A stretch of DNA of 64,000 nt, from NCBI GenBank assembly GCA_019352035.1, contig JABBNZ010000004.1, positions 36,193 through 100,192 on the forward strand, written 5' to 3'. Below are positions 200 to 29,019 of the stretch, in pieces. The notes below the pieces were generated by a model, which was given only the letters and a program-made list of their open reading frames with translations, was not told the DNA's origin and made no database searches. The position numbers and the translations under genes are program-made. The stretch is from Pseudomonadota bacterium (GTDB lineage: Bacteria > Pseudomonadota > Gammaproteobacteria > Steroidobacterales > Steroidobacteraceae). Numbering within the stretch: the stretch's first letter is position 1; each line of letters opens with the position of its first letter.

Positions 200-2811
<2,612 letters not shown>

Positions 2812-2941
2812 GGCTTTGATTCGGCCCGAACCACTGGCCTTCCGTCCGCGCAATGGCGCAAAATCGCGGGACGGCCACTCGACAGGGGGGCCCAGGGCTC
2901 TGGGTACCCGGTCACAAACGAAAAATCAACTGAGGAACGAC

Positions 2942-3157
2942 ATGGCTACCAAGCTCGAGAAGACCCTGAAGCGCGAGATCGACGTGGACGGCAAGGCCTA
3001 CATGCTGGCCATCTCCCCCGACGGCCTGAAGCTCACCGAGAAGGGCCGGCGCAAGGGCCAGGAACTCAGCTGGAAGGGCTTGCTCGACGGCCAGGCTGCG
3101 GCGCCGAGCGCGGCGGGCGCATCGATGGAGGAGGCGGAGACCGCGGCCGAGGAGTAG
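2942..3157 (+). CDS. Small hypothetical protein (about 71 aa)
   Basis: ATG at 2942; MATKLEKTLKREIDVDGKAYMLAISPDGLKLTEKGRRKGQELSWKGLLDG..., acidic tail. Confidence 0.7.
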   Translation: MATKLEKTLKREIDVDGKAYMLAISPDGLKLTEKGRRKGQELSWKGLLDGQAAAPSAAGASMEEAETAAEE

Positions 3158-3265
3158 GCGGGCGCGTCGGCCAAGCATCGGGGCCCAGGGGCGCGCGATG
3201 CGCGGGGACCGGGGAGCCCCCTGCCCCCATGGATGGCCAGCGGCGCGGTGCAGAATCACTGGCCT

Positions 3266-3718
3266 TTATCGCAGGCAGCCCGTGAGAGGGGCCCGAGGCT
3301 TGATGGTCTTCATGCAGACCGTCGTCTCGAGCCTCTGCACCCCGGGCATGCGCCGGACCTCCATGCGCAGCAGCTGATCGAGCTGCTCGATCTCCCCGAC
3401 CAGCACGTGCATCAGATAATCCGCCTGTCCCGCGGTGGTGAAGCACTGCAGCACGGAAGGGTGGCTCGCGGCGGCCGCTTCGAACTCCGCGTGGCGGGCC
3501 GCATTGATGGTCACGTGGACGAACGCGTGTACCCGCAACCCGAGGCCTTCGGCATCGACCTCCGTCCGGTAGCCGCGGATCAATCCCTGGCGCTCCAACT
3601 CCCGCACCCGCTGCCAGCAGGGCGTCTTCGAGAGTCCTACGCGCTCGCCCAGCTCCGCGAATGAGATGCGGGCGTCCTCCTCGAGCAGGCGCATGATCTC
3701 GCGGTCGATCTTGTCCAT
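3266..3718 (-). CDS. Lrp/AsnC family transcriptional regulator
   Basis: MDKIDREIMRLLEEDARISFAELGERVGLSKTPCWQRVRELERQGLI N-terminal HTH plus AsnC C-terminal domain. Confidence 0.93.
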   Translation of the reverse strand: MDKIDREIMRLLEEDARISFAELGERVGLSKTPCWQRVRELERQGLIRGYRTEVDAEGLGLRVHAFVHVTINAARHAEFEAAAASHPSVLQCFTTAGQADYLMHVLVGEIEQLDQLLRMEVRRMPGVQRLETTVCMKTIKPRAPLTGCLR

Positions 3719-3878
3719 GGCTGAATAACGGTCTGCGGCGTGGGCCTTTGCCAGGCCAAAGTTCTACCCGCAGTAATGTCTTTAGTCCAGCCGAGGCACC
3801 GCCGGCGCCAGGGCGCCAGTGGCACGCCCCGGAAGGGGGCGACTACAATGGCTACAACATGGCTGCGGATGGACTGAA

Positions 3879-4169
3879 ATGGGTGAGGAGCGCGTGAGCG
3901 AAGAGAGTCTGCGCGAGCTGCTTGCGCGCGTGCATGAGCGGCTGGGTCAGGCGGGATCCGTGGACCCGGAGTCGCGCAAGCTGCTGTCCACGCTGGTGCG
4001 CGACATCGATCGCGCCCTGGGACGGGGCGGGGCGGCCGGTACTGCCGGGGCGGCGGGCTCGCACGCAACCAGGCTGGAATCCCTGGCCGTGCGGTTCGAG
4101 GCGGATCACCCCGGCGTTGCCGAGGTGATCCGCGAAGTGATCGACGCGCTCGTTCGCGTCGGGATTTAG
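3879..4169 (+). CDS. DUF4404-like small protein
   Basis: MGEERVSEESLRELLARVHERLGQAGSVDPESRKLLSTLVRDIDRAL...; ATG 3879 preferred over 3819. Confidence 0.65.
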   Translation: MGEERVSEESLRELLARVHERLGQAGSVDPESRKLLSTLVRDIDRALGRGGAAGTAGAAGSHATRLESLAVRFEADHPGVAEVIREVIDALVRVGI

Positions 4170-4314
4170 CATAGGTACAGGGACGAGCGCCGCCGGCGCG
4201 CCGGGCCGGGCAGGCTGCGACTCATGCGTCGCACGGGTGGCCATGGACGGACACCCCGGAGCTTTGCGCGTAGCAGGGACTGCGCAGCGTAAAGCCCGGG
4301 TCCAGCGCTTTTAG

Positions 4315-6426
<2,112 letters not shown>

Positions 6427-6565
6427 CGGGAATTTTGGCGAAAAGAGTACCGATCCCCTATTTGCTGGCGGCGACGGGCCAACTCAAGAGGCGCCAAAGT
6501 AAAGCGCGCAATTCTATTGGACGCGGTCGAAAATACCAAATTCGTTCCTCCCACCCCGCACCGGC

Positions 6566-8395
6566 TCAGGCCTTCCGGCCGGCGTTTCGGAGCATAAGTT
6601 GCTGAAATTCCTTTAGTTCATCAGGGCTCAGGCTGCCGGCCTGGCTCCTGTCCTCGAGGGCCTTCAGGCGCCGCTCGATGACCTGGCCGGCGAGCTTGGC
6701 GAGGGCGGCCTTGAGCTCCAGGGCCGCAGCCTCGGCGTCTCCCAGCATTTCCTCGCGCTCGAGCAGCCGCCCCAGGTGCTCTCCTCCGCTCCTGTCGGCC
6801 CAGCGCTCCAGGACTTGAGCCGGAACTGAGACCGGGCGCGCGCGCAAATCGTCCAGCAGCTCGCGCAGGAGCGCGATTCCCGGCTCCTCGCAGGCGTCGA
6901 GCCCCGTGCGCTCCTCGGCGCTGATGGAGCCTGCGATGGAGGGGAATCCGACGAGGCGCGCGATGGCCTGGCGCACGAGGCTGCCGCGGCCGGCGGAGAC
7001 TCGGCCTTGGGCCCCCGGCCCGGCGGGTCCCGGGCGGGGGTTCGCCGCTTCGCGGCTGACCCTCTCGGCACCCTCAGCCGCCCTGCCGGTGCCGGCCCAA
7101 AGCGCCTGCAGCCGCTCGGCCGCGAGCCCCACGACCGCGGCAACTCTGGCGGTCAGAAGTTCCCGGTAGACGCCTTCGGGCACTTTGGCGATGAGCGGCC
7201 GGGCGCTCTCGGCAAAGCGCGCGCGGCCGTCGGCGTGGGTGAGGTCCGTTTGCTCGGACAACTCCCTCACCAGGTATTCCGAGAGCGGCAGCGTCGACTC
7301 CAGCCGCCGCTCGAACGCCTCGCGCCCCTCCGCTCCCACGAGGCTGTCGGGATCCTGCCCTTCGGGCAGGAAGAGAAAGCGGATCTCCCGGCCCTCGCGC
7401 GCTTCCGGCAGCGCATGCTGCAAGGCGCGCCACGCCGCGGCCCGGCCCGCGCGGTCGCCGTCAAAAGCAAACGCCACCTCTCTCACCAGTTGGAAGATGC
7501 GCCGGAAATGCTCGGGCGTCGTCGACGTGCCGAGGGTGGCGACGGCATACGGGATGCCGGCCTGATGCAGGCGGACGGTATCCATGTAGCCTTCGACGAC
7601 CAACAGACGCTCGAGCCGCGCGCGGGACCGGCGGGTCTCATGCAGCCCGTAGAGCTCGCGTCCCTTGTGGAAGAGAACCGTCTCCGGGGAGTTGAGGTAC
7701 TTTGGCTCCCCGCGGTCGATGACGCGGCCGCCGAAGGCGATGACGCGGCCGCGCGCGTCCCGAATGGGGAACATGATGCGGTCGCGGAAGCGGTCGTAGT
7801 AGCGGTCGCCTTCACGCGCCGCCGCCGTGGTGCGTCCAGCATCGCGCTCGATGATCAGGCCGAGATCGGCAAGCGCCCGGCGCTCCGCCTCGCTGCCGCC
7901 GAAACGCTTCAGCACGGCGTTCCAGGAATCCGGCGCGTAACCGATGCCGAACTGCGTGATCGTCTCCGCAGTCAGGCCGCGGCGCGTCAGGTAGTCGTGC
8001 GCCCGCGCGTCCCGCGACAGCGTCTCGGCGTAAAACTTGGCCACGCGTGACATGAGGTCGTGGAGCCTCTCGGAATCGCGGGTGGCGCCGGGGTGGCCGC
8101 CGCTTTCCTGCGGCACTTCGAGGCCGAGCCGGCCGGCCAGTTCCTCCACGGCCTCGGGGAAGGCCATGCGGTCGTGCTCCATCAGGAAGCGAAGCACCGT
8201 GCCGTGCGCACCGCAGCCGAAGCAGTGATAGAACTGCTTCTCCGGGCTCACCCAGAAGGAGGCGGTTTTCTCGTTGTGGAAGGGGCAGCAGGCCTTGTAC
8301 TCGCGGCCGGCCTTCTTCAGCTGCAAGCGTGAGCCGACCACCTCCACGATGTCCGCGCGGGCGATCAGCTCGTCGATGAAGCTCTGGGGGATGAT
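6566..8395 (-). CDS. dnaG: DNA primase DnaG (start codon ambiguous; see findings)
   Basis: Zinc-binding CCPFHNEKTASFWVSPEKQFYHCFGCGAHG and Toprim VVEGYMDTVRLHQAGI; the ORF-track start is GTG at 8347, but conserved N-terminal sequence IPQSFIDELIARADIV extends to about 8395. Confidence 0.95.
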   Translation of the reverse strand: MIPQSFIDELIARADIVEVVGSRLQLKKAGREYKACCPFHNEKTASFWVSPEKQFYHCFGCGAHGTVLRFLMEHDRMAFPEAVEELAGRLGLEVPQESGGHPGATRDSERLHDLMSRVAKFYAETLSRDARAHDYLTRRGLTAETITQFGIGYAPDSWNAVLKRFGGSEAERRALADLGLIIERDAGRTTAAAREGDRYYDRFRDRIMFPIRDARGRVIAFGGRVIDRGEPKYLNSPETVLFHKGRELYGLHETRRSRARLERLLVVEGYMDTVRLHQAGIPYAVATLGTSTTPEHFRRIFQLVREVAFAFDGDRAGRAAAWRALQHALPEAREGREIRFLFLPEGQDPDSLVGAEGREAFERRLESTLPLSEYLVRELSEQTDLTHADGRARFAESARPLIAKVPEGVYRELLTARVAAVVGLAAERLQALWAGTGRAAEGAERVSREAANPRPGPAGPGAQGRVSAGRGSLVRQAIARLVGFPSIAGSISAEERTGLDACEEPGIALLRELLDDLRARPVSVPAQVLERWADRSGGEHLGRLLEREEMLGDAEAAALELKAALAKLAGQVIERRLKALEDRSQAGSLSPDELKEFQQLMLRNAGRKA

Positions 8396-8497
8396 GGGGG
8401 AATTCTACTCGAAGCCGTAGACTGGTCGGAGCCTCGCCGCCGCTCGATTCGAAGCCGCGGGACCGTCGGGGCACTGCCAGTGCGCGGCCAGCACCCC

Positions 8498-8947
8498 TCA
8501 GCGTGAGGCCAGCTTTTCCTTCACGCGGGCGCTGACGGCGCCCATGTCGGCGCGGCCCTGCGCCTGGGATTTCACCAGCGCCATGACCTTCCCCATGTCC
8601 TTGGCGGAGCTCGCCCCGGTCGAGGTGATGGCGCCCGCAATCAGCGCGTCGAGCTCCGCATCGCCCATGCGGGCCGGCAGGTAGCCCTCGATGATCGAGA
8701 TTTCGGCGCTCTCCTTGGCCACCAGGTCGGCGCGGCCGCCGGCCTGGAACTGGACGATCGCCTCCTTGCGCTGCTTGATCATTTTCTCCAGTACCGCGAG
8801 CACCTGCGCGTCATCGAGCGTAATGCGCTCGTCGACCTCGCGTTGCTTGATGGCGGCGAGTGCCAGGCGGATGGTGGCCAGGCGCTCCTTCTCGCCCGAG
8901 CGCATGGCGCTCTTCATGTCCTCCGTGATGCGTTCCCTGAGAGTCAT
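8498..8947 (-). CDS. GatB/YqeY domain-containing protein
   Basis: MTLRERITEDMKSAMRSGEKERLATIRLALAAIKQREVDERITLDDAQVLAVLEKMIKQRKEAI; lies between rpsU and dnaG. Confidence 0.95.
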   Translation of the reverse strand: MTLRERITEDMKSAMRSGEKERLATIRLALAAIKQREVDERITLDDAQVLAVLEKMIKQRKEAIVQFQAGGRADLVAKESAEISIIEGYLPARMGDAELDALIAGAITSTGASSAKDMGKVMALVKSQAQGRADMGAVSARVKEKLASR

Positions 8948-19140: not shown

Positions 19141-22100
19141 ATGAATACCGTCGTGAAGATCGAGCCGAAGGATATCGATGCCATTCCGTTCCAGGAGGCA
19201 TCGCTTGACATCTGGGACAAGAAATACCGCCTGACCGCCAAAGACGGGACGCCCATCGATAGGACGATGGACGATACCTACAAGCGCGTCGCCCGTGCGC
19301 TCGCCGATGTCGAGCGTGAAGAGGTGCGCGAGCACTGGTACGAGCGGTTCCTCTGGGCTCTGCGCCGCGGCGCCATTCCCGCGGGACGCGTGACTTCCAA
19401 CGCGGGCGCGCTGGAGCACAAGCCGGCCACCTCCACGATCAACTGCACGGTGTCGGGAACGATCCGCGACTCGATGGACGACATTTTGCGAAAGGTCCAT
19501 GAAGCCGGCCTGACACTCAAGGCCGGCTGCGGCATCGGCTACGAGCACTCCACCCTGCGGCCGCGCGGCGCCTACGTCTCCGGTGCGGGCGCCTACACGT
19601 CAGGTCCGCTGTCGTTCATGGATATCTACGACAAGATGTGCTTCACGGTCTCCTCGGCCGGGGGGCGCCGCGGCGCGCAGATGGGCACGTTCGACGTAGG
19701 GCACCCCGACGCCATGGAGTTCATCCGCGCCAAACGTGAGAACGGCAGGCTGCGTCAGTTCAACCTGTCGCTCCTCATCACCGATGAGTTCATGGCCGCC
19801 GTGCGCGAGAACCGCGAGTGGAAGCTGGCGTTTCCCGTCATCCGCACGGAGATCGAGGGCGAACAGCCTGATCTGACCGACAGCGCCAGTTACGTCTGGC
19901 GCGAATGGCCGGTTCACGATGGCTACATCGTGAACGAGGAAGGCCTGGTCGCCTGCAAGGTGTACAAGACACTGCCGGCCCGGCGCATGTGGGACGTCAT
20001 CATGACGTCGACCTACGATTTCGCCGAGCCGGGATTCATCCTCATCGACCGCGTCAACGAGATGAACAACAACTGGTGGTGCGAGAACATCCGCGCCACC
20101 AATCCGTGCGTCACCGCGGATACCCGGCTGGCGACCCAGTATGGACTCGTGCGTATCGGCGATCTCCATGATGCGCGCGTGGACATTCAGGCCACGGTGG
20201 ATCGCCGGGCTCTCGGCGAGAGCGAAGGCGGAGTGGCTGTGCGTCCCGCGGTGCCCGCGTTCATGACGGCTCCATCGGCTGATGTATATCGAGTAGTCAC
20301 CGAAGCGGGTTACGAGATCAAGGCCACTGAGTGGCACGACTTCTACACCACCCGCGGCAAGGTCAAGCTCAAGGATCTCAAGCCCGGTGACGAGCTGCTG
20401 ATCCAGTCGGGCAAAGGACAGTTCGGCGGCTGCGGCGGCGCAGAGGTTGGCGTGTTGCTGGGCCTGATCACCGCAGACGGGCACATCACCAACCACGGCA
20501 AAGGGCGGCAAGCCGCCGTGGTGAACTTGTGGGGCGCGGACCGCGATTACGCTGATGTTCTGGTGTCCTACGTCAACACCATGATTACGGGTTGGGCTGC
20601 CGGGCCAAGGAATTACCGCGTGAGCGCGGTTGCGGTACCGGAGCGGAACCTGGTGATGATTCGCTCCGTGATCCTCATGCGCTACCTCAGGGAATTTTAC
20701 GGAATCAGCGTGGCGTGCAAGACCGCCGTGCCGGAGATCATCTGGCGCGGCAACGAGGAGTGCGTCAAGGGGTATCTGCGCGGATTGTTCCAATCTGACG
20801 GCACGGTGAACACGAGCGGAAACGCCGGTACCAGCTGCTCGGTTCGTCTGGCTTCCTGCCATCCGTCGCTCCTCAGGGACGTGCAGATGCTGCTCGCGAA
20901 CATCGGCATCTTCTCGAGCGTGCACAAGCGCCGTGAAGCGGGTGAGAGGCTTCTGCCGGACGGCAAGGGCGGCAAGAAGGCTTATGCATGCAAGGCCGAC
21001 TATGAGCTCATCGTCGACGGGGAGTCGCGTGAGCGCTTCATGTCGGAAATCGGCTTCCTCGCGGATCCGAAAAAGGAGAAGTACGAAAGATGGGCGGAAG
21101 GCAAAGCGCCGCGGAAAACCCAGCGATTTGCCAGCCGCATCGCTGAAATCGTGTACGTGGGCAAGGAGGCCGTGTTCGATACGACCCAGCCTGACCACAA
21201 TGCCGTGATCTTCAACGGCATCGTGACAGGGCAATGCGGAGAGCAGCCATTGCCGCCGTACGGGTCATGTCTGTTAGGTTCAGTGAACCTGACTCGCTTT
21301 GTGCGGGAGCCGTTCACCGAGCGCGCCAAGTTCGATTGGGAGGAGTACCGCGCGGTGGTGAAGGTCTTCACGCGCATGCTCGACAACGTCGTGGAGATCA
21401 ACGGACTGCCGCTCGAGAAGCAGCGCGAAGAGATTCTGCGCAAGCGCCGCCACGGCATGGGGTACCTGGGCCTCGGGAGCACGATGACGCTGCTGCGCAT
21501 GAAGTACGGCTCGTCCGAGTCGACCCGCTTCACGGAGGAAGTGTCGCGCGAGATGGCCCTGGCCGGCTGGGAAGCGGGGCTCGAGCTGGCGCGCGAGAAG
21601 GGGCCGGCACCCATCATGAACGAGGGTTTCAAGGTCACGAAGGAGATGCTGAGGAAGCGTCCCGAGATGGCCCGCGACGGCTGGAAGCCCGGCGACAAGA
21701 TCCCCGGGCGGATTCTGCACGCGAAATACAGCCGCTACATGCAGCGCGTTGCGCAAGTCGCGCCCAGGCTGGTGGAAGAGCTGGCGGAGACCGGCTCCCG
21801 ATTCACGCACCACACTTCGATAGCGCCGACGGGGACGATCTCGCTCTCGCTCGCCAACAATGCATCGAACGGCATCGAGCCCTCATTCGCACATTATTAC
21901 TTCCGCAACGTGATCAGGGGCGGCAAGAAGTCGAAGGAGAAGGTCGACGTCTACTCCTTCGAGCTGCTGGCCTACCGTGAGCTCATGAACCCGAAAGCGA
22001 AGCCCGGCTCGACCGCGGAGGGCGAGAGACTGCCGGACTATTTCATCGCGTCCGAGGACGTCAAGCCGAGCGAGCATGTGGACGTGCAGGCTGCGGCACA

Positions 22101-22416
22101 GAGATGGGTGGACTCTTCCATCTCCAAAACGGCGAATGTGCCGACGGATTTTCCCTACGAGAAGTTCAAGGACATTTATCTCTACGCTCACGAGAAGGGT
22201 CTGAAGGGCTGCACCACGTTCCGCTTCAATCCGGAAGCGTTTCAGGGCGTCCTGGTGAAGGAGCAGGACCTGAAGAATACGACTTACAAGTTCACGCTGG
22301 ATGACGGAACGGTCGTGGAGGCGCGCGGTGATGAGGAAATCGAGTACGACGGGGAGCTGCACACAGCGGCGAACCTATTTGACGCGATGAAGGACGGCTA
22401 CTATGGACGGTACTGA
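19141..22416 (+). CDS. nrdJ: Adenosylcobalamin-dependent (class II) ribonucleotide reductase, NrdJa-type, interrupted by an intein
   Basis: GRVTSNAGALEHKPATSTINCTVSGTI...GCGIGYEHSTLRPRG...IRATNP-[intein]-CGEQPLPPYGSCLLGSVNLTRFV...THHTSIAPTGTISL. Confidence 0.96.
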   Translation: MNTVVKIEPKDIDAIPFQEASLDIWDKKYRLTAKDGTPIDRTMDDTYKRVARALADVEREEVREHWYERFLWALRRGAIPAGRVTSNAGALEHKPATSTINCTVSGTIRDSMDDILRKVHEAGLTLKAGCGIGYEHSTLRPRGAYVSGAGAYTSGPLSFMDIYDKMCFTVSSAGGRRGAQMGTFDVGHPDAMEFIRAKRENGRLRQFNLSLLITDEFMAAVRENREWKLAFPVIRTEIEGEQPDLTDSASYVWREWPVHDGYIVNEEGLVACKVYKTLPARRMWDVIMTSTYDFAEPGFILIDRVNEMNNNWWCENIRATNPCVTADTRLATQYGLVRIGDLHDARVDIQATVDRRALGESEGGVAVRPAVPAFMTAPSADVYRVVTEAGYEIKATEWHDFYTTRGKVKLKDLKPGDELLIQSGKGQFGGCGGAEVGVLLGLITADGHITNHGKGRQAAVVNLWGADRDYADVLVSYVNTMITGWAAGPRNYRVSAVAVPERNLVMIRSVILMRYLREFYGISVACKTAVPEIIWRGNEECVKGYLRGLFQSDGTVNTSGNAGTSCSVRLASCHPSLLRDVQMLLANIGIFSSVHKRREAGERLLPDGKGGKKAYACKADYELIVDGESRERFMSEIGFLADPKKEKYERWAEGKAPRKTQRFASRIAEIVYVGKEAVFDTTQPDHNAVIFNGIVTGQCGEQPLPPYGSCLLGSVNLTRFVREPFTERAKFDWEEYRAVVKVFTRMLDNVVEINGLPLEKQREEILRKRRHGMGYLGLGSTMTLLRMKYGSSESTRFTEEVSREMALAGWEAGLELAREKGPAPIMNEGFKVTKEMLRKRPEMARDGWKPGDKIPGRILHAKYSRYMQRVAQVAPRLVEELAETGSRFTHHTSIAPTGTISLSLANNASNGIEPSFAHYYFRNVIRGGKKSKEKVDVYSFELLAYRELMNPKAKPGSTAEGERLPDYFIASEDVKPSEHVDVQAAAQRWVDSSISKTANVPTDFPYEKFKDIYLYAHEKGLKGCTTFRFNPEAFQGVLVKEQDLKNTTYKFTLDDGTVVEARGDEEIEYDGELHTAANLFDAMKDGYYGRY
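20107..21234 (+). other. In-frame intein (376 aa) with LAGLIDADG homing endonuclease, between NP and CGEQ of the RNR active site
   Basis: Starts CVTADTRLATQYGLVRIGDL (Cys1 at 20107-20109); block B-like ATEWHDFYTTRG; DOD motifs LLGLITADGHIT and YLRGLFQSDGTVN; ends VFDTTQPDHNAVIFNGIVTGQ before Cys+1 at 21235. Confidence 0.96.
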
Positions 22417-23275: not shown

Positions 23276-24025
23276 TCAGCTCTGCCGCGTGCGACGCCGG
23301 CGGCCGAGCATCAGGCAGCCGAGGAGGCCCGCTCCGAAGAGGGCGAGCGAACCGGGCTCGGACGCCTGCACGACGCTGGTGTCGAAGCTGTAGAAGGGAT
23401 CCGGCACCGCGCTGGTGCCTGTCGAGAACGCGGCGGCGACGGTCAGCGAGTAAGACCGGATGGGATCCGGACCGCCGGTGAGTGTGGCGCCCGTGCTGCC
23501 GCTGCTCAGGTTGAGCGTGCCGATCAGATTGCTCGGGCCGCAGTTCGTTGCGGGGTTCCCGGGATCGCTCGGATTGCAGAAGTAGCTGCCGCTGGTGTCC
23601 CACCAGGCGGAGGTGGTCAACGCGCCGCTGTTGATCGTGCCGCCATACTGCAGCAGGAAGCCGTTCTCGCCGATGACCTGATTAAAGCCGGGGGCGCTGA
23701 TCACGATCGACAGGGGGTCCGTAGAGCAGCCGCCCGCTGCAGTCACGCATGTCGAGGCGACACCGCCCAGGTCGATGCCGGCATTGGTGTTGAGCGTGGG
23801 CGCATAGCTGATGGCGGCGAGGGCGACCGTCCAGCCATTCAGGGCCGTCGTGGTGGCATACGTCGCGATGGATGGGGAGCCGGTGGTGGAGGTGCTGCCC
23901 ATCACCGTGGCGGTCGCCGTGCCGCTTTGCAGGAATACCTCGATGGGATCGGCAAAAGCCGGGCTGGCGGCCATCGCGCTGGCGACGATCGCGCCAAGTC
24001 CAAGGGTGGCAATGCGGCTGAGCAT
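23276..24025 (-). CDS. PEP-CTERM sorting domain-containing exported protein
   Basis: Signal peptide MLSRIATLGLGAIVASAMAASPAFA; C-terminus ASEPGSLALFGAGLLGCLMLGRRRRTRQS. Confidence 0.85.
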   Translation of the reverse strand: MLSRIATLGLGAIVASAMAASPAFADPIEVFLQSGTATATVMGSTSTTGSPSIATYATTTALNGWTVALAAISYAPTLNTNAGIDLGGVASTCVTAAGGCSTDPLSIVISAPGFNQVIGENGFLLQYGGTINSGALTTSAWWDTSGSYFCNPSDPGNPATNCGPSNLIGTLNLSSGSTGATLTGGPDPIRSYSLTVAAAFSTGTSAVPDPFYSFDTSVVQASEPGSLALFGAGLLGCLMLGRRRRTRQS

Positions 24026-24280
24026 TTCTGGTCCTCGTCTGAGGCTTTTCCTGAACGGTAACTCCTGCCGCTGCAAGAACGGTTCCACCTCTGATGTCCT
24101 GTTCCATATCAATAAGTTAGCGTTATGCCCTCGCGCCGCGGCAGGCCTGTGTAAAAAACATCGACGCTCTTTGCAGCCCCGCTCGCCGGCCGCGGCGGTC
24201 AGCGTTTGTCATATTGGACGGGCACGCGAGGCCGGGCGTAGCATCGCGCGGATAACTACAAGGCTACGCCGCCGCAGACG

Positions 24281-25657
24281 ATGAACGCCGCAGCCCCCAT
24301 ACCGCCCGAGACGGCATTGGATGAGAACGCCTGGGAGGATCTCTTAAGCTTCATCGAGGAGCGCCGGGTCATCCCGATCGTAGGGCCGGAGCTGCTGATG
24401 GTCGCGAGCGAGGGTCGGCCACGTCTGCTCTACGATGTGCTCGCAGAACGCCTGGCGACGCGCCTCAATGTCGACATGCGAGAACTCCCCGAGCGCTACT
24501 CGCTGAACGATGTGGTGTGTCTGTTTCTCGCCCATCGCGGGCGGCGCGAGGAGGCCTACGTTCGGCTGCGCGGCGTGCTGAAGGACCTCGACGTCGAGCC
24601 GCCCGCGGCGCTGCGGCAGCTCGCGGCCATTACCGACTTCGACCTCTTCGTGTCCACCACTTTCGACTCGCTGCTCGAGACGGCGATCAATCTCGCCCGC
24701 TTCGAGGGGGCGCACTCGACGGAGGCGCTCTCCTACGCGCCCAATCGCGTGACGGACCTGCCGGTCGAGCGTGAGCGGCTCACCCGGCCAACGGTGTATC
24801 ACCTCTTCGGCAAGATCTCGGCCTCCCCGACCTACGTCATCTCGGACGAGGATCTACTCGAGTATCTGTGTGCGCTGCAGAACGAGCATCTGGCGCCCGA
24901 GCGGCTCTTCTACGAGCTCGAGCACAACCACCTGCTCGTGATCGGCGGGTCCCTCAGCAACTGGGTCGCGCGGCTCTTTCTGCGCATGGCCAAGCGCCAG
25001 CGGCTCTCGGCCCCGCGCGATGTCGGTGAGGTGCTCGCCGATGACCTGATCGGCGAGGAGCCGCACCTGGTGAGTTTTCTGCATCAGGTGAGCGTGCATA
25101 CGCGCATCTACCGTGGCGCGGAGCGCTTTGTCGCGGAGCTCCATGAACGCTGGCAGGCGCGGCGCAAGCCCGCGGATGCCGGCATGGATCCGGCCCGCTT
25201 CCTGCCGCCGGTGCGGGAGATGCCCGAGAACGCGGTGTTCATCAGCTACGCGCGCGAGGACCTGCCGGCGGTAAAGCGGATCAAGGCGGGACTCGAAGCC
25301 GCAGGCATCACCACCTGGTTCGACCTCGAGCGCCTGGAAAGCGGCGATGACTACGACCTCAAGGTACAGCGCAACATCGCCCGCTGCTCGTACTTCATTC
25401 CCGTGATCTCGCAGAACACAGAGCGTCGCCTCGAGGCGTACTTCCGTCGTGAGTGGAGCTATGCGCTAGACCGCACGCGCAACATGGCCGACGGCGCACT
25501 CTTCATCCTGCCGGTGACCATCGACACCACGAACCCGGTCGCAGCGCTCGTTCCGGAGCGCTTCCGGGCGCTGCACTTCGCGCCGCTCGAGGGTGGCGAG
25601 GTCACCCCCGAGTTCGCCCGCCGGCTGGCGGAGCTCATGAGGGCGCGCCGCGGGTGA
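24281..25657 (+). CDS. SIR2-like domain plus C-terminal TIR domain protein
   Basis: N-terminal RRVIPIVGPELL...FDLFVSTTFDSLLETAI...TVYHLFGKISASPTYVISDEDLLEYL; C-terminal NAVFISYAREDLPAVKRIKAGLEAAGITTWFDLERLESGDDYDLKVQRNIARCSYFIPVISQNT...FRREWSYAL. Confidence 0.88.
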   Translation: MNAAAPIPPETALDENAWEDLLSFIEERRVIPIVGPELLMVASEGRPRLLYDVLAERLATRLNVDMRELPERYSLNDVVCLFLAHRGRREEAYVRLRGVLKDLDVEPPAALRQLAAITDFDLFVSTTFDSLLETAINLARFEGAHSTEALSYAPNRVTDLPVERERLTRPTVYHLFGKISASPTYVISDEDLLEYLCALQNEHLAPERLFYELEHNHLLVIGGSLSNWVARLFLRMAKRQRLSAPRDVGEVLADDLIGEEPHLVSFLHQVSVHTRIYRGAERFVAELHERWQARRKPADAGMDPARFLPPVREMPENAVFISYAREDLPAVKRIKAGLEAAGITTWFDLERLESGDDYDLKVQRNIARCSYFIPVISQNTERRLEAYFRREWSYALDRTRNMADGALFILPVTIDTTNPVAALVPERFRALHFAPLEGGEVTPEFARRLAELMRARRG

Positions 25658-28600
25658 GTATCGCGTCCGAGTCTGCGAACGCTGCGGCCAGCTCCGACCC
25701 GCAGGCGACAGTCGATGCCCACAACCCCTATCTCGGGCTCGTCTCTTTCACTGAGGAGACGCGCGAGTACTTCTTCGGGCGCGATGAGGAGGTAGCGGAG
25801 CTCGCGCGGCGCGTGCAGCGCAAGCTCCTCACGGTGCTCTTCGGGAAGTCGGGGCTCGGCAAGACCTCGATCCTGCGCGCGGGCCTCGTCCCGAGGCTGC
25901 GCCAGCATGGCTGCTGCCCGGTGTACGTGCGCATCGCCTATGGCCGCGACAGCCCCGAGCCCGCCGAGCAGATCAAGGCGGCGATCCGGCGCGCCGCGAG
26001 CGTCTCGGGCGAATGGACGCAAGCGGGAGTCGCCGCCGCCGGGGAGACGCTCTGGGAATTCCTGCACCACCGCGACGATGTGCTGCGCGACGCCGCGGGC
26101 GCCCCGCTGCTCCCGTTGCTCATCTTCGATCAGTTCGAGGAGCTCTTCACCCTCGCGCAAAGCGATGACTTTGGTCGCGCGCGGGCGGCGCATTTCATCG
26201 AGGAGCTCGGTGACCTGGTAGAGAACCGGCCGCCGAAGGCGCTCGAGGCGAGGCTCGATGAGGACGACAGTGCCGCCGAGCGCTTCGACTTCGCGCGCAG
26301 CGACTACCGGGTGCTGATCGCGCTGCGCGAGGACTATCTCGCTCCGCTCGAGAGCTTGCGGCAGGCGATGCCCAGCCTGCTGCAGAACCGCGTCCGCCTG
26401 GCGCCGATGCGGAGCGCTCAGGCGCTCGAGGCGGTGCGACGGCCCGGCGGCCATCTGGTCTCCGAGGGGGCCGCGGAGGCCATCGTGCGCTTCGTCGCCG
26501 GCTCCGAGCGCGCCAACGCGGCAGTCGAGCCCTCGCTCCTTTCTCTCATCTGCCGCGAGCTGAACGATGCGCGCCTGGCGCAGGGCCGGGAGGCGATCTC
26601 GCTCGACCTCCTCGCCGGCTCGCACCAGAGCATTCTCGTCAACTTCTACGAGCGCTCGCTCGCCGACCAGCCTGCGGCCGTCCGGCGGGTCATCGAGGAT
26701 GAGTTGCTGACGGACTCGGGCTTTCGCGAGAATGTAGCCGAGGAGCGGCTGCTGAAGCGCTTGCAGGCGGCCGGCGCCGCCCCCGGGGCGCTCGCGATGC
26801 TGGTGAATCGCCGGCTGCTGCGCATCGAGGAGCGGCTCGACATGCGCCGGGTGGAGCTCACGCACGATGTGCTCTGCGGCGTCGTCAAGGCGAGCCGCGA
26901 TCAGCGCCTGGAGCGTGAGGCACGCGAGGCGGCCGAGCGCGTGCTCGAGGAGCAGCGCTCGCGCGAGCGCGCCGCGCGCCATGCCTTCCGGCGGGCGCGT
27001 TCCGTCGCGCTTGGCTGCATCCTGCTCGCAGTGCTCGCGCTCTCGGCCGCCGGCTACGCGTACGTGAACGCCGAGCGCGCGCGACGCGCCGAGCGCCTGG
27101 CGCAGCAGAACCGGGCACTCGCCGAGCAGGCGCGCAATCATGCCGAACACCTCCTCGGCTATCTCGCGGACGATTTCGAGCGCCAGCTCGAGAGCTTCGG
27201 GCAGCTGAAAATCATCGCCGAGTTCACTCAGCGCCAGATCGACTACTTTCATTCGCTCCCCCCGGAGCTGCGAAGCCCCGAGACCATCCGCTACGGCGCG
27301 CTGGCGCTGATCGAGCATGCTGAGACGCTGCGCCAGCTCGGCGATTACGACACGGGCATCCGCAATCTGAGTGAGGCCGTGCGGCTGCTGTCGCAATTGA
27401 GCCGTGGCGGTCACGCCTCGCAGGCGACCGACATCGCGCTCGGGCGTGCCGACACCGCGCGCTGCCTGATCCTCACCGTGCGTGATCCAACACCGGGCCT
27501 CGCCGCGTGCCGCCAGGCCATCGCGCTCCTTCGGCCGCTCGCCGAGCGGCCGGGCGCCTCGGTGCCGGCCCGGCAGGCGTACCTCGAGGCCCTCACAGGT
27601 CTGGGTTGGGCGGTGCAGAACTTCGGCGTCGATTATCAGGGGGCCGAGCAGGCTACGCGCGAGGCGATGCGGATCGCCACCGGCCTGGGGGCCGAGGACT
27701 TGAGGCACCTGCAGGTCAGCGCCGATTACGCCTTTGCGGGGGCCTGGCGCGTGAACGCGCTAGTCAACCTCGACCGCAATCAGGAAGCGCTGCGCGTCGG
27801 CAAGAAAGTCCTGGCCGTGACCGATGGAGTGCTCGCGCAACGCCCCTGGTACCGGCTGACGCTCGGCGCCAAGGAGATCACCGAGAGCACCCTGGCCCAA
27901 GCCGCCGGAGACGAGCTCGATCCGCGGGCGGGGGCGCGATTCGGGCGGGCGGAGCGGCAGGCGGCGTTGGCCTTTCTGCGACTCGATCCCAAGAACGTGG
28001 ACATGCGCAACAACCTCGGCCTGGCGATCACGGATGTCTGCGTTCCGCTCTGGGCTCAGGGGCATCTGCCGCAGGCCCTGGGCTGGTGCCGCAAAGCGCT
28101 CGATGCCTGGGTGCGGGTGTCGAAGAGCTTGAGCGGCGGCTTCCTGGTCCAGGTCCGCTACGTCGCCGGCCGTACGGCCGATTGGCAGGCCGTCGCAGGC
28201 GATCTGTCCGGTGCCCTGCGCACGGCCGCGACCGCCGAGCGTCTGGTCGCATCAAGTTCCCCCCACGAGCCGACGACGGGTGGTAGGTTCGGCATCTCCC
28301 TCGATGCGCGAGCCGTGGCGGCCGAGGTGGCCTTCGAGCGTGGTGATTTCGCCGCCGCGAGTCACATGGCGCAGGGTGCCATCCAGAGCTTGAGGGGCGC
28401 CAAGGTGGATGACGCCGGCAGGCTCGCGCGCGCGTATCTGCTCTACGCATTCGCGCGGGTCGGCGGCCGCGCCGAGTACCAGCTCGGCCATTTTGCCGCA
28501 GCGGCAGGCGCCGCGCGCCTCGCGCTCGATCAGGCCAAAATCGTCGCGCCGTTCTCCTCCTCGGTGCTGGCGAGCGAGCGCGACAGGGCGCGCACTTCGG

Positions 28601-29019
28601 AGCGGCTGGCGATGGCGCTCGCCCGGCAGGGCAAACTGCGGCAGGCCGCGCAAGTCATCGGCCCGGTGGTGATCTTCGAGGAGGGTCTTCTCCGGCGCAA
28701 TCATGGTGATGTCTGGGTGCCTTACGAGCTTGCGCGCGCACTCTACGCCCAATCCCTATGCGATCCGGTCCAGCACGCGCGCCTGCGCGGACGAGCGGCG
28801 ACGCTGCTCGAGCAACTGCCGCCGGACCTCAAGGTTCTGCGCGACGTGCGGCGCTTGCGGCAACGGGTCGCCGGCGGGTCGGCCCAGGCTGCCCGGCGCT
28901 CGAGCATCCGCGGGAGCCCCGCCATCCTCCGCCGCGACAGCGCCGCTTCAGGTCCGCGCCGTCTCGGCCTGACTCCACTTCTGCCAGGCGTACAACGGCA
29001 GGCCCGCGAGCATCAGTAG
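25654..29019 (+). CDS. STAND-type P-loop NTPase (nSTAND1-like) with a TM segment and TPR-like C-terminal region
   Basis: GTG at 25654 overlaps the upstream TGA (GTGA). NPYLGLVSFTEETREYFFGRDEEVAEL, Walker A GKSGLGKTS, Walker B LLPLLIFDQFEELF, TM SVALGCILLAVLALSAAGYAYV, then helical repeats. Confidence 0.9.
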   Translation: MSIASESANAAASSDPQATVDAHNPYLGLVSFTEETREYFFGRDEEVAELARRVQRKLLTVLFGKSGLGKTSILRAGLVPRLRQHGCCPVYVRIAYGRDSPEPAEQIKAAIRRAASVSGEWTQAGVAAAGETLWEFLHHRDDVLRDAAGAPLLPLLIFDQFEELFTLAQSDDFGRARAAHFIEELGDLVENRPPKALEARLDEDDSAAERFDFARSDYRVLIALREDYLAPLESLRQAMPSLLQNRVRLAPMRSAQALEAVRRPGGHLVSEGAAEAIVRFVAGSERANAAVEPSLLSLICRELNDARLAQGREAISLDLLAGSHQSILVNFYERSLADQPAAVRRVIEDELLTDSGFRENVAEERLLKRLQAAGAAPGALAMLVNRRLLRIEERLDMRRVELTHDVLCGVVKASRDQRLEREAREAAERVLEEQRSRERAARHAFRRARSVALGCILLAVLALSAAGYAYVNAERARRAERLAQQNRALAEQARNHAEHLLGYLADDFERQLESFGQLKIIAEFTQRQIDYFHSLPPELRSPETIRYGALALIEHAETLRQLGDYDTGIRNLSEAVRLLSQLSRGGHASQATDIALGRADTARCLILTVRDPTPGLAACRQAIALLRPLAERPGASVPARQAYLEALTGLGWAVQNFGVDYQGAEQATREAMRIATGLGAEDLRHLQVSADYAFAGAWRVNALVNLDRNQEALRVGKKVLAVTDGVLAQRPWYRLTLGAKEITESTLAQAAGDELDPRAGARFGRAERQAALAFLRLDPKNVDMRNNLGLAITDVCVPLWAQGHLPQALGWCRKALDAWVRVSKSLSGGFLVQVRYVAGRTADWQAVAGDLSGALRTAATAERLVASSSPHEPTTGGRFGISLDARAVAAEVAFERGDFAAASHMAQGAIQSLRGAKVDDAGRLARAYLLYAFARVGGRAEYQLGHFAAAAGAARLALDQAKIVAPFSSSVLASERDRARTSERLAMALARQGKLRQAAQVIGPVVIFEEGLLRRNHGDVWVPYELARALYAQSLCDPVQHARLRGRAATLLEQLPPDLKVLRDVRRLRQRVAGGSAQAARRSSIRGSPAILRRDSAASGPRRLGLTPLLPGVQRQAREHQ

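What the first reader, a model, noticed from the sequence alone, without database searches (positions are those of the whole stretch)
24281..29019. Candidate undescribed immune operon: SIR2-like/TIR protein coupled to a membrane-anchored STAND NTPase
Seen: gene 1 fuses an N-terminal SIR2-like domain to a C-terminal TIR domain; gene 2 starts at a GTG overlapping gene 1's TGA (GTGA) and encodes an nSTAND1-type NTPase (Walker A GKSGLGKTS, Walker B LLIFDQFEE), a single predicted TM segment and a long TPR-like region. Established: SIR2 and TIR domains are NAD-consuming effectors in systems such as Thoeris and Avs/STAND immunity, and STAND ATPases sense phage proteins and oligomerise. Inference: a two-protein system in which the STAND protein senses at the membrane and activates TIR NADase. 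The TM anchor and splitting of effector from sensor are unusual. No transposase or other defence gene is nearby.
Basis: partly seen in the sequence, partly recalled or inferred. Interest (0 to 1): 0.8.

Follow-up and report, generated by a model that had tools for sequence, protein, structure and literature searches.

The report
Membrane-anchored TIR/STAND immune gene pair
Two neighbouring bacterial genes, shared patchily by distantly related soil and water bacteria, look like a membrane-spanning alarm (a STAND switch with its probable sensor outside the inner membrane) wired to a separate TIR enzyme that would attack the cell's NAD, a build not found in the papers and defence catalogues searched.

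Summary
Gene 1 is a SIR2-like plus TIR fusion. Gene 2, starting in a GTGA overlap, is an nSTAND1 NTPase, one transmembrane helix and a TPR solenoid. Of 80 homologous loci, 74 keep gene 2 directly downstream and 58 of 73 keep the 4-nt start/stop overlap. The pair is patchy (about a third of the genus, about 1% of class or phylum samples) and nested across phyla.

One correction matters. In all 80 homologues, and in TIR-less or remote relatives, the SIR2 domain has lost the catalytic Asn and His, while the TIR Glu is invariant. So it is a pseudo-SIR2 adaptor, not a second NADase. The transmembrane helix is universal, and charge and Cys bias put the TPRs in the periplasm. Remote relatives swap the C-terminal sensor for WD40. 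One relative has pseudo-SIR2 without TIR and a STAND protein with a C-terminal membrane domain.

Half of the well-flanked relatives carry a SLOG- or SLATT-type gene within 1 kb, suggesting Thoeris-like signalling to a membrane effector. The window itself lacks it; homology to its closest relatives breaks at 28,896. No activity has been shown. Best filed as a new variant of TIR/STAND immunity.

The parts
24281..25657 (+). Gene 1: pseudo-SIR2 + TIR protein, 458 aa
   Evidence: 80 homologues at 63-91% identity
24317..25159 (+). pseudo-SIR2 domain (aa 13-293)
   Evidence: SIR2_2 hit at aa 122-243; AlphaFold model matches KomC, ThsA, Avs5, DSR2 SIR2 folds, E 1e-5 to 7e-8
24659..24661 (+). Thr127 where active SIR2 NADases have the catalytic Asn (TTN[FY]D -> TTFD)
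   Evidence: Thr in 80/80; aligned with canonical SIR2 proteins; ThsA N112 needed for NADase (PMC7272460)
24806..24808 (+). Phe176 where active SIR2 NADases have the catalytic His (KLHG -> HL[FL]G)
   Evidence: Leu 50 / Phe 30 of 80; ThsA H152
25229..25648 (+). TIR domain (aa 317-456)
   Evidence: TIR_2 E=3.5e-19
25451..25453 (+). Glu391, candidate TIR catalytic Glu in FRREW
   Evidence: invariant in 80/80; aligns to the Glu of the TIR domain of PDB 8j8h, a SPARTA-type protein (catalytic role of that Glu from general knowledge)
25654..25657 (+). GTGA start/stop overlap (translational coupling)
   Evidence: NTGA overlap in 58 of 73 loci
25654..29019 (+). Gene 2: nSTAND1-TM-TPR protein, 1121 aa
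25726..26952 (+). nSTAND1 NTPase module (aa 25-433)
   Evidence: PF20703 E=1.1e-34
25843..25869 (+). Walker A, GKSGLGKTS (aa 64-72)
   Evidence: G64, S66, G67, G69, K70, T71, S72 invariant in 55
26116..26142 (+). Walker B, LLIFDQFEE (aa 155-163)
   Evidence: aa 156-163 invariant in 55
26863..26865 (+). His404 of the invariant THDVL motif, resembling the winged-helix (MHD-like) His of STAND proteins
   Evidence: aa 403-407 invariant in 55; role by analogy
27004..27060 (+). Transmembrane helix (aa 451-469)
   Evidence: present in 58/58; more positive charge on the NTPase side in 54/58, reverse in none
27205..28878 (+). TPR-type solenoid (aa 518-1075), predicted periplasmic sensor
   Evidence: AlphaFold2 mostly pLDDT > 90; conservation 0.33-0.48 against about 0.8 in the NTPase
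28896..28897 (.). Junction: homology with L031/L032 ends here; there the native P2 stop and a convergent SLOG-SLATT gene follow, here a permease gene follows

Best explanation
A two-protein, membrane-linked cell-suicide or dormancy immune system. P2 is an inner-membrane STAND switch: the NTPase is cytoplasmic, one helix crosses the membrane, and the fast-evolving TPR solenoid is probably periplasmic and senses an infection- or envelope-related trigger. Triggering lets the NTPase exchange nucleotide and cluster. P1 docks on it through a catalytically dead SIR2 domain acting as adaptor or oligomerisation platform, which brings its TIR domains together so that they cleave NAD+. The outcome is either NAD depletion or, in lineages with an adjacent SLOG-SLATT, PGDYG-SLATT or TPR-S-SLOG-cyclase gene, a TIR-made ADP-ribose-type signal read by that partner, as in Thoeris. 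Shown by sequence: the gene unit, motifs, transmembrane helix, pseudo-SIR2, swapping of sensor and effector modules, patchy spread, recurrent partner. Inferred: topology, docking, NADase activity, signalling, trigger, anti-phage role.
For: Unit conserved in 74/80 loci with 58/73 NTGA overlaps. Walker A/B and THD motif invariant. TIR Glu invariant and aligned to the SPARTA-type TIR. Pseudo-SIR2 in 80/80 plus relatives. Core with swappable modules: pseudo-SIR2 without TIR plus nSTAND1 with C-terminal membrane segments (L174); WD40 or WD40-Sel1 sensors after the transmembrane helix (L184, L185). Transmembrane helix universal, N-in charge bias 54/58, Cys 0.70% on the NTPase side against 0.23% on the TPR side. 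Sensor half diverges faster. Patchy: about 11 of 36 other genomes of the genus, 1 of 273 others in a class sample, 2 of 398 others in a phylum sample; Verrucomicrobiota nested in Pseudomonadota. SLOG/SLATT-type partner within 1 kb in 20 of 40 well-flanked loci; SLOG-SLATT genes elsewhere in related genomes also adjoin TIR genes.
Against: No activity data. No hit to P2 in PADLOC and no homologue in the phage or viral collections searched. Classical defence-island enrichment is weak against control. The window copy lacks the SLOG/SLATT partner and has an altered P2 C-terminus, so it could be a decaying copy, though both frames are open and motifs intact. A periplasmic solenoid would be unusual for Avs-like sensors, whose known triggers are cytoplasmic. 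SLOG assignment rests on weak Pfam hits (best E=0.004) plus motif pattern.
Confidence: 0.6

Rival explanations
1. Simple Avs-like NAD depletion: the STAND protein senses a cytoplasmic phage protein, the transmembrane helix is only a tether, and TIR clustering depletes NAD. SLOG/SLATT neighbours are separate systems that co-travel.
For: Half of the well-flanked relatives have no such partner, nor does the window. Avs5 uses a STAND protein with a SIR2 effector (PMC12931631, listed).
Against: Charge and Cys bias argue for an extracytoplasmic solenoid. Partners sit within 1 kb in several lineages and orientations, and SLOG-SLATT genes adjoin TIR genes elsewhere too.
Confidence: 0.25
2. A regulatory or stress-signalling module (for example envelope stress or multicellular behaviour) rather than phage defence: a transmembrane receptor that controls NAD-derived signalling.
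For: The solenoid is predicted periplasmic. One recurrent neighbour carries a nucleotide-cyclase domain. No strong defence-island signal.
Against: Accessory, horizontally scattered distribution, fast sensor divergence and TIR/STAND/SLATT domain company favour conflict function.
Confidence: 0.12
3. Both SIR2 and TIR domains are active NADases.
For: The SIR2 fold is retained and the domain is strongly conserved; a shifted His (Y-H-L) is common in the main family.
Against: Asn to Thr and His to Phe/Leu in 80/80; the shifted His is Gln or Tyr in two remote relatives. ThsA N112A alone abolished NAD binding and cleavage.
Confidence: 0.04

Closest known systems
Avs / AVAST antiviral STAND proteins (incl. 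Avs5, SIR2-STAND)
   Same: STAND NTPase switch with C-terminal repeat sensor, tied to an NAD-targeting effector fold
   Different: Effector is a separate protein; SIR2 is catalytically dead and TIR is the likely enzyme; nSTAND1-type NTPase with no PADLOC Avs hit; a conserved transmembrane helix between switch and sensor
Thoeris (TIR ThsB + SIR2-SLOG or Macro-TM ThsA)
   Same: TIR enzyme; SIR2 fold; SLOG-containing effector genes recur beside the pair in relatives
   Different: No ThsA-type active SIR2-SLOG protein; a STAND switch is added; SLOG partner is absent in the window and in half of the well-flanked relatives
Predicted TIR + SLATT systems of Burroughs/Aravind (discussed in PMC9503650 and PMC7159879)
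   Same: TIR gene next to a two-helix SLATT membrane effector, thought to respond to ADP-ribose derivatives
   Different: Here the TIR is on a pseudo-SIR2 adaptor coupled to a transmembrane STAND protein; not described in the passages read
nSTAND1 effector-associated-domain systems (PMC8195603; PMC10907252)
   Same: nSTAND1 NTPase in predicted conflict systems
   Different: Those passages describe EAD, FGS or lectin fusions; no pseudo-SIR2-TIR partner gene, no TM-TPR
TIR-TM-TPR single proteins (common in the same genomes)
   Same: TIR with the same EGYFR.EW motif, a transmembrane helix and TPRs
   Different: No STAND NTPase and no pseudo-SIR2; one polypeptide

Membership tests
TIR NADase family | TIR fold with catalytic Glu | tested here: met
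   TIR_2 3.5e-19; Glu391 80/80, aligned to SPARTA-type TIR
TIR NADase family | NAD+ hydrolysis | not testable with these tools
   needs enzyme assay
SIR2 NADase effectors (ThsA, DSR2, Avs5) | SIR2 fold | tested here: met
   SIR2_2; Foldseek to KomC/ThsA/Avs5/DSR2
SIR2 NADase effectors (ThsA, DSR2, Avs5) | catalytic Asn and His | tested here: not met
   Asn to Thr 80/80, His to Phe/Leu 80/80; same loss in remote relatives
nSTAND1 STAND NTPases | nSTAND1 profile with intact Walker A/B | tested here: met
Avs (AVAST) systems | match to Avs family models; effector and sensor in one STAND polypeptide | tested here: not met
   no PADLOC hit for P2; effector is on a separate gene
Thoeris | ThsA effector (active SIR2-SLOG or Macro-TM) beside a TIR ThsB | tested here: not met
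   P1 SIR2 degenerate; no SLOG or Macro gene seen beside the pair in the window; weak ThsB-model hit of the TIR only, 0.0018
Thoeris | TIR-derived nucleotide activates the effector | not testable with these tools
   SLOG/SLATT-type neighbours in 20 of 40 relatives make it plausible
SLOG superfamily (the neighbour genes) | SLOG domain | tested here: inconclusive
   weak hits to YAcAr in 5/13, DprA in 3/13, cpYpsA in 3/13; motif pattern GHR, A.G.D, LP, GGTA; no PDB sequence hit
SLATT two-helix effectors (the neighbour genes) | SLATT profile | tested here: inconclusive
   E about 1e-5, just under the curated cut-off; three flank genes reached SLATT_3 at 1e-5 or better
Mobile defence-type gene | patchy, horizontally spread | tested here: met
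Defence-island gene | flanks enriched in known defence genes | tested here: inconclusive
   TIR_2 in 13 of 207 flank genes; other PADLOC hits not clearly above a random-gene control

The most novel reading that the evidence does not exclude
A modular immune class not seen in the sources searched: a true transmembrane STAND receptor with an exchangeable extracytoplasmic sensor (TPR, WD40, WD40-Sel1) that relays across the inner membrane to a pseudo-SIR2 adaptor carrying a swappable effector (TIR, or none when a membrane domain sits on the STAND protein itself), with the TIR product opening SLOG-SLATT membrane effectors: a bacterial analogue of a Toll-like receptor pathway.
Probability: 0.25. 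Interest if true: 0.85.

Novelty: new variant of a known kind. Interest (0 to 1): 0.6.

Why it matters
Known STAND and TIR anti-phage sensors are, as far as I know, cytoplasmic. A STAND switch with its sensor on the far side of the inner membrane would let a bacterium detect attack at the envelope, before or during DNA entry, and would be a bacterial receptor-type TIR pathway. The pseudo-SIR2 gives a clean case of a dead NADase fold kept as an adaptor, and it warns against reading every SIR2 hit as an effector. The recurrent SLOG/SLATT-type neighbours make the long-standing prediction that TIR products gate SLATT membrane proteins directly testable.

Tried and rejected
Active SIR2: rejected on motifs. 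PDB sequence search of P2: no hit. PDB search of the SLOG-like profile: no useful hit. hhalign of the pseudo-SIR2 profile against single canonical SIR2 sequences gave no alignment; the MAFFT alignment worked. One profile search of the class failed on the server, replaced. Viral contigs and phages: no homologue; plasmids: one distant 32% match in a Paraburkholderia replicon. Empty-site search: operon-free relatives keep the permease plus the next gene but not the upstream block, so no clean empty site. PADLOC island enrichment was not clearly above control once TIR and generic ATPase/helicase models are set aside. Paper searches for nSTAND1 with SIR2/TIR found no description of this pair; subscription journals and most preprints are not held, so novelty is not proven.

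Full report
OBSERVATION. P1 (24281-25657, 458 aa) carries SIR2_2 and TIR_2 domains; P2 (25654-29019, 1121 aa) carries nSTAND1. The GTG of P2 overlaps the TGA of P1. AlphaFold2 models show a SIR2-type fold for P1 (Foldseek matches KomC, ThsA, Avs5 and DSR2; mean pLDDT 73) and a confident helical solenoid at the C-terminus of P2.

CONSERVATION OF THE UNIT. A scan of 85,462 species genomes gave 80 homologous P1 loci at 63-91% identity, from Gamma- and Betaproteobacteria and Verrucomicrobiota, with single bins labelled Acidobacteriota and Actinomycetota. P2 follows in 74 of 80; five of the six without it end at or near the contig edge, and L068 is the one real exception. A 4-nt start/stop overlap is kept in 58 of 73. 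Walker A, Walker B and a THDVL motif are invariant in 55 P2 proteins. The NTPase half is about 80% conserved per column and the solenoid about 33-48%, as expected of a switch with a fast-evolving sensor.

THE SIR2 DOMAIN IS DEAD. Active SIR2 NADases need an Asn (TTN[FY]D) and a His (KLHG); in ThsA these are N112 and H152 (PMC7272460). Here the Asn is Thr in 80/80 and the His is Leu (50) or Phe (30). Three canonical SIR2 proteins from the same genus keep both residues and align with the family at these motifs. Remote relatives (L183-L185) and TIR-less relatives (L173, L174) share the loss. The TIR Glu (FRREW) is invariant and aligns with the TIR Glu of a SPARTA-type structure. So the TIR is the only likely NADase; the pseudo-SIR2 is best read as an adaptor or oligomerisation domain (inference).

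MEMBRANE TOPOLOGY. One hydrophobic helix lies between NTPase and solenoid in 58/58. Flanking net charge averages +3.4 on the NTPase side and +1.1 on the solenoid side; the bias goes this way in 54 of 58 and the other way in none; Cys is three times rarer on the solenoid side. This predicts a cytoplasmic NTPase and a periplasmic solenoid (inference, heuristic).

MODULARITY. In two distant, complete genomes (G422, G473) the same pseudo-SIR2-TIR gene is next to nSTAND1-TM proteins whose C-termini are WD40, WD40 plus Sel1, or a long TPR-like region (WD40 and Sel1 read from the repeat pattern, not from a profile search). In G232 a pseudo-SIR2 without TIR precedes an nSTAND1 protein with C-terminal hydrophobic segments that resemble a SLATT-type membrane domain by eye. 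The stable core is thus pseudo-SIR2 plus nSTAND1, with exchangeable effector and sensor.

NEIGHBOURS. In 20 of 40 loci with 2 kb or more on both sides, one of three gene types lies within 1 kb: a SLOG-SLATT protein, a TPR-S/SLOG/cyclase protein, or a SLATT protein with a PGDYG domain. They occur in different clades and orientations, which argues for repeated association; in G027 the PGDYG-SLATT gene directly follows P2 on the same strand. The SLOG call rests on weak but consistent Pfam hits and motif pattern. SLOG-SLATT homologues elsewhere in related genomes also sit beside TIR genes in six of the regions inspected (L135, L136, L138, L139, L141, L142). A SLATT membrane effector responding to ADP-ribose derivatives has been predicted by others (PMC9503650, PMC7159879).

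THE WINDOW COPY. Its closest relatives L031 and L032 have the SLOG-SLATT gene 51-72 nt downstream, convergent. In the window homology stops at 28896, the native P2 stop is replaced by ~40 unconserved residues, and an amino-acid permease gene follows. Either the partner was lost or a rearrangement occurred; a binning or assembly artefact in this 217-contig genome cannot be excluded.

DISTRIBUTION. About 11 of 36 other genomes of the same genus have P1 homologues with the SIR2 part, but only 1 of 273 others in a class sample and 2 of 398 others in a phylum sample. In the P1 tree Verrucomicrobiota fall in two groups within Pseudomonadota, and at least 4 label changes for Pseudomonadota are forced by supported branches; bins can be contaminated, so single-row phyla are not relied on. 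This is the pattern of a horizontally spread accessory system. Classical defence-island enrichment was not clearly seen (against control), apart from extra TIR genes (13 of 207 flank genes).

VERDICT. A real, conserved, probably immune two-gene system; a new variant of TIR/STAND immunity. Mechanism confidence 0.6; nothing biochemical has been shown.

Noticed in passing
window 19141-22416 (+): Ribonucleotide-reductase-like ORF of 1091 aa interrupted after ATNPC by an intein-like insert that ends ...HNAVIFNGIVTGQ before CGEQPLPPYGSC.
   Followed up: no
window 23276-24112 (-): PEP-CTERM-type secreted protein directly upstream; the same neighbour is kept in L031, L032 and L034, so the upstream side of the locus is shared while the downstream side differs.
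   Followed up: partly
L142 (G000:C134) 5732-8836: Elsewhere in the window's own genome: Tll0287-HAMP protein, small TIR protein and SLOG-SLATT-like protein in a row, possibly a separate haem/redox-sensor-linked TIR-SLATT operon; similar in G008 (L141), and G001 (L140) keeps the Tll0287-like and SLOG-SLATT genes.
   Followed up: partly
L122 (G000:C217) 762-4243; L120: SIR2 (canonical N/H) next to a HerA-like ATPase, resembling known SIR2-HerA defence pairs.
   Followed up: no
L086, L087, L088, L110, L055: TIR-TM-TPR proteins, sometimes several in a row, next to the operon in Opitutaceae and other genomes, suggesting local expansion of TIR receptors.
   Followed up: partly
L039 5227-5694, L151 13-1542: PGDYG domain (function unknown) paired with or fused to a SLATT protein directly after P2: a possible ligand-sensing domain equivalent to SLOG.
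   Followed up: partly
L053 13139-15034, L058 6009-7868: TPR-S + SLOG-like + guanylate/adenylate-cyclase-like proteins as recurrent neighbours of the pair.
   Followed up: partly
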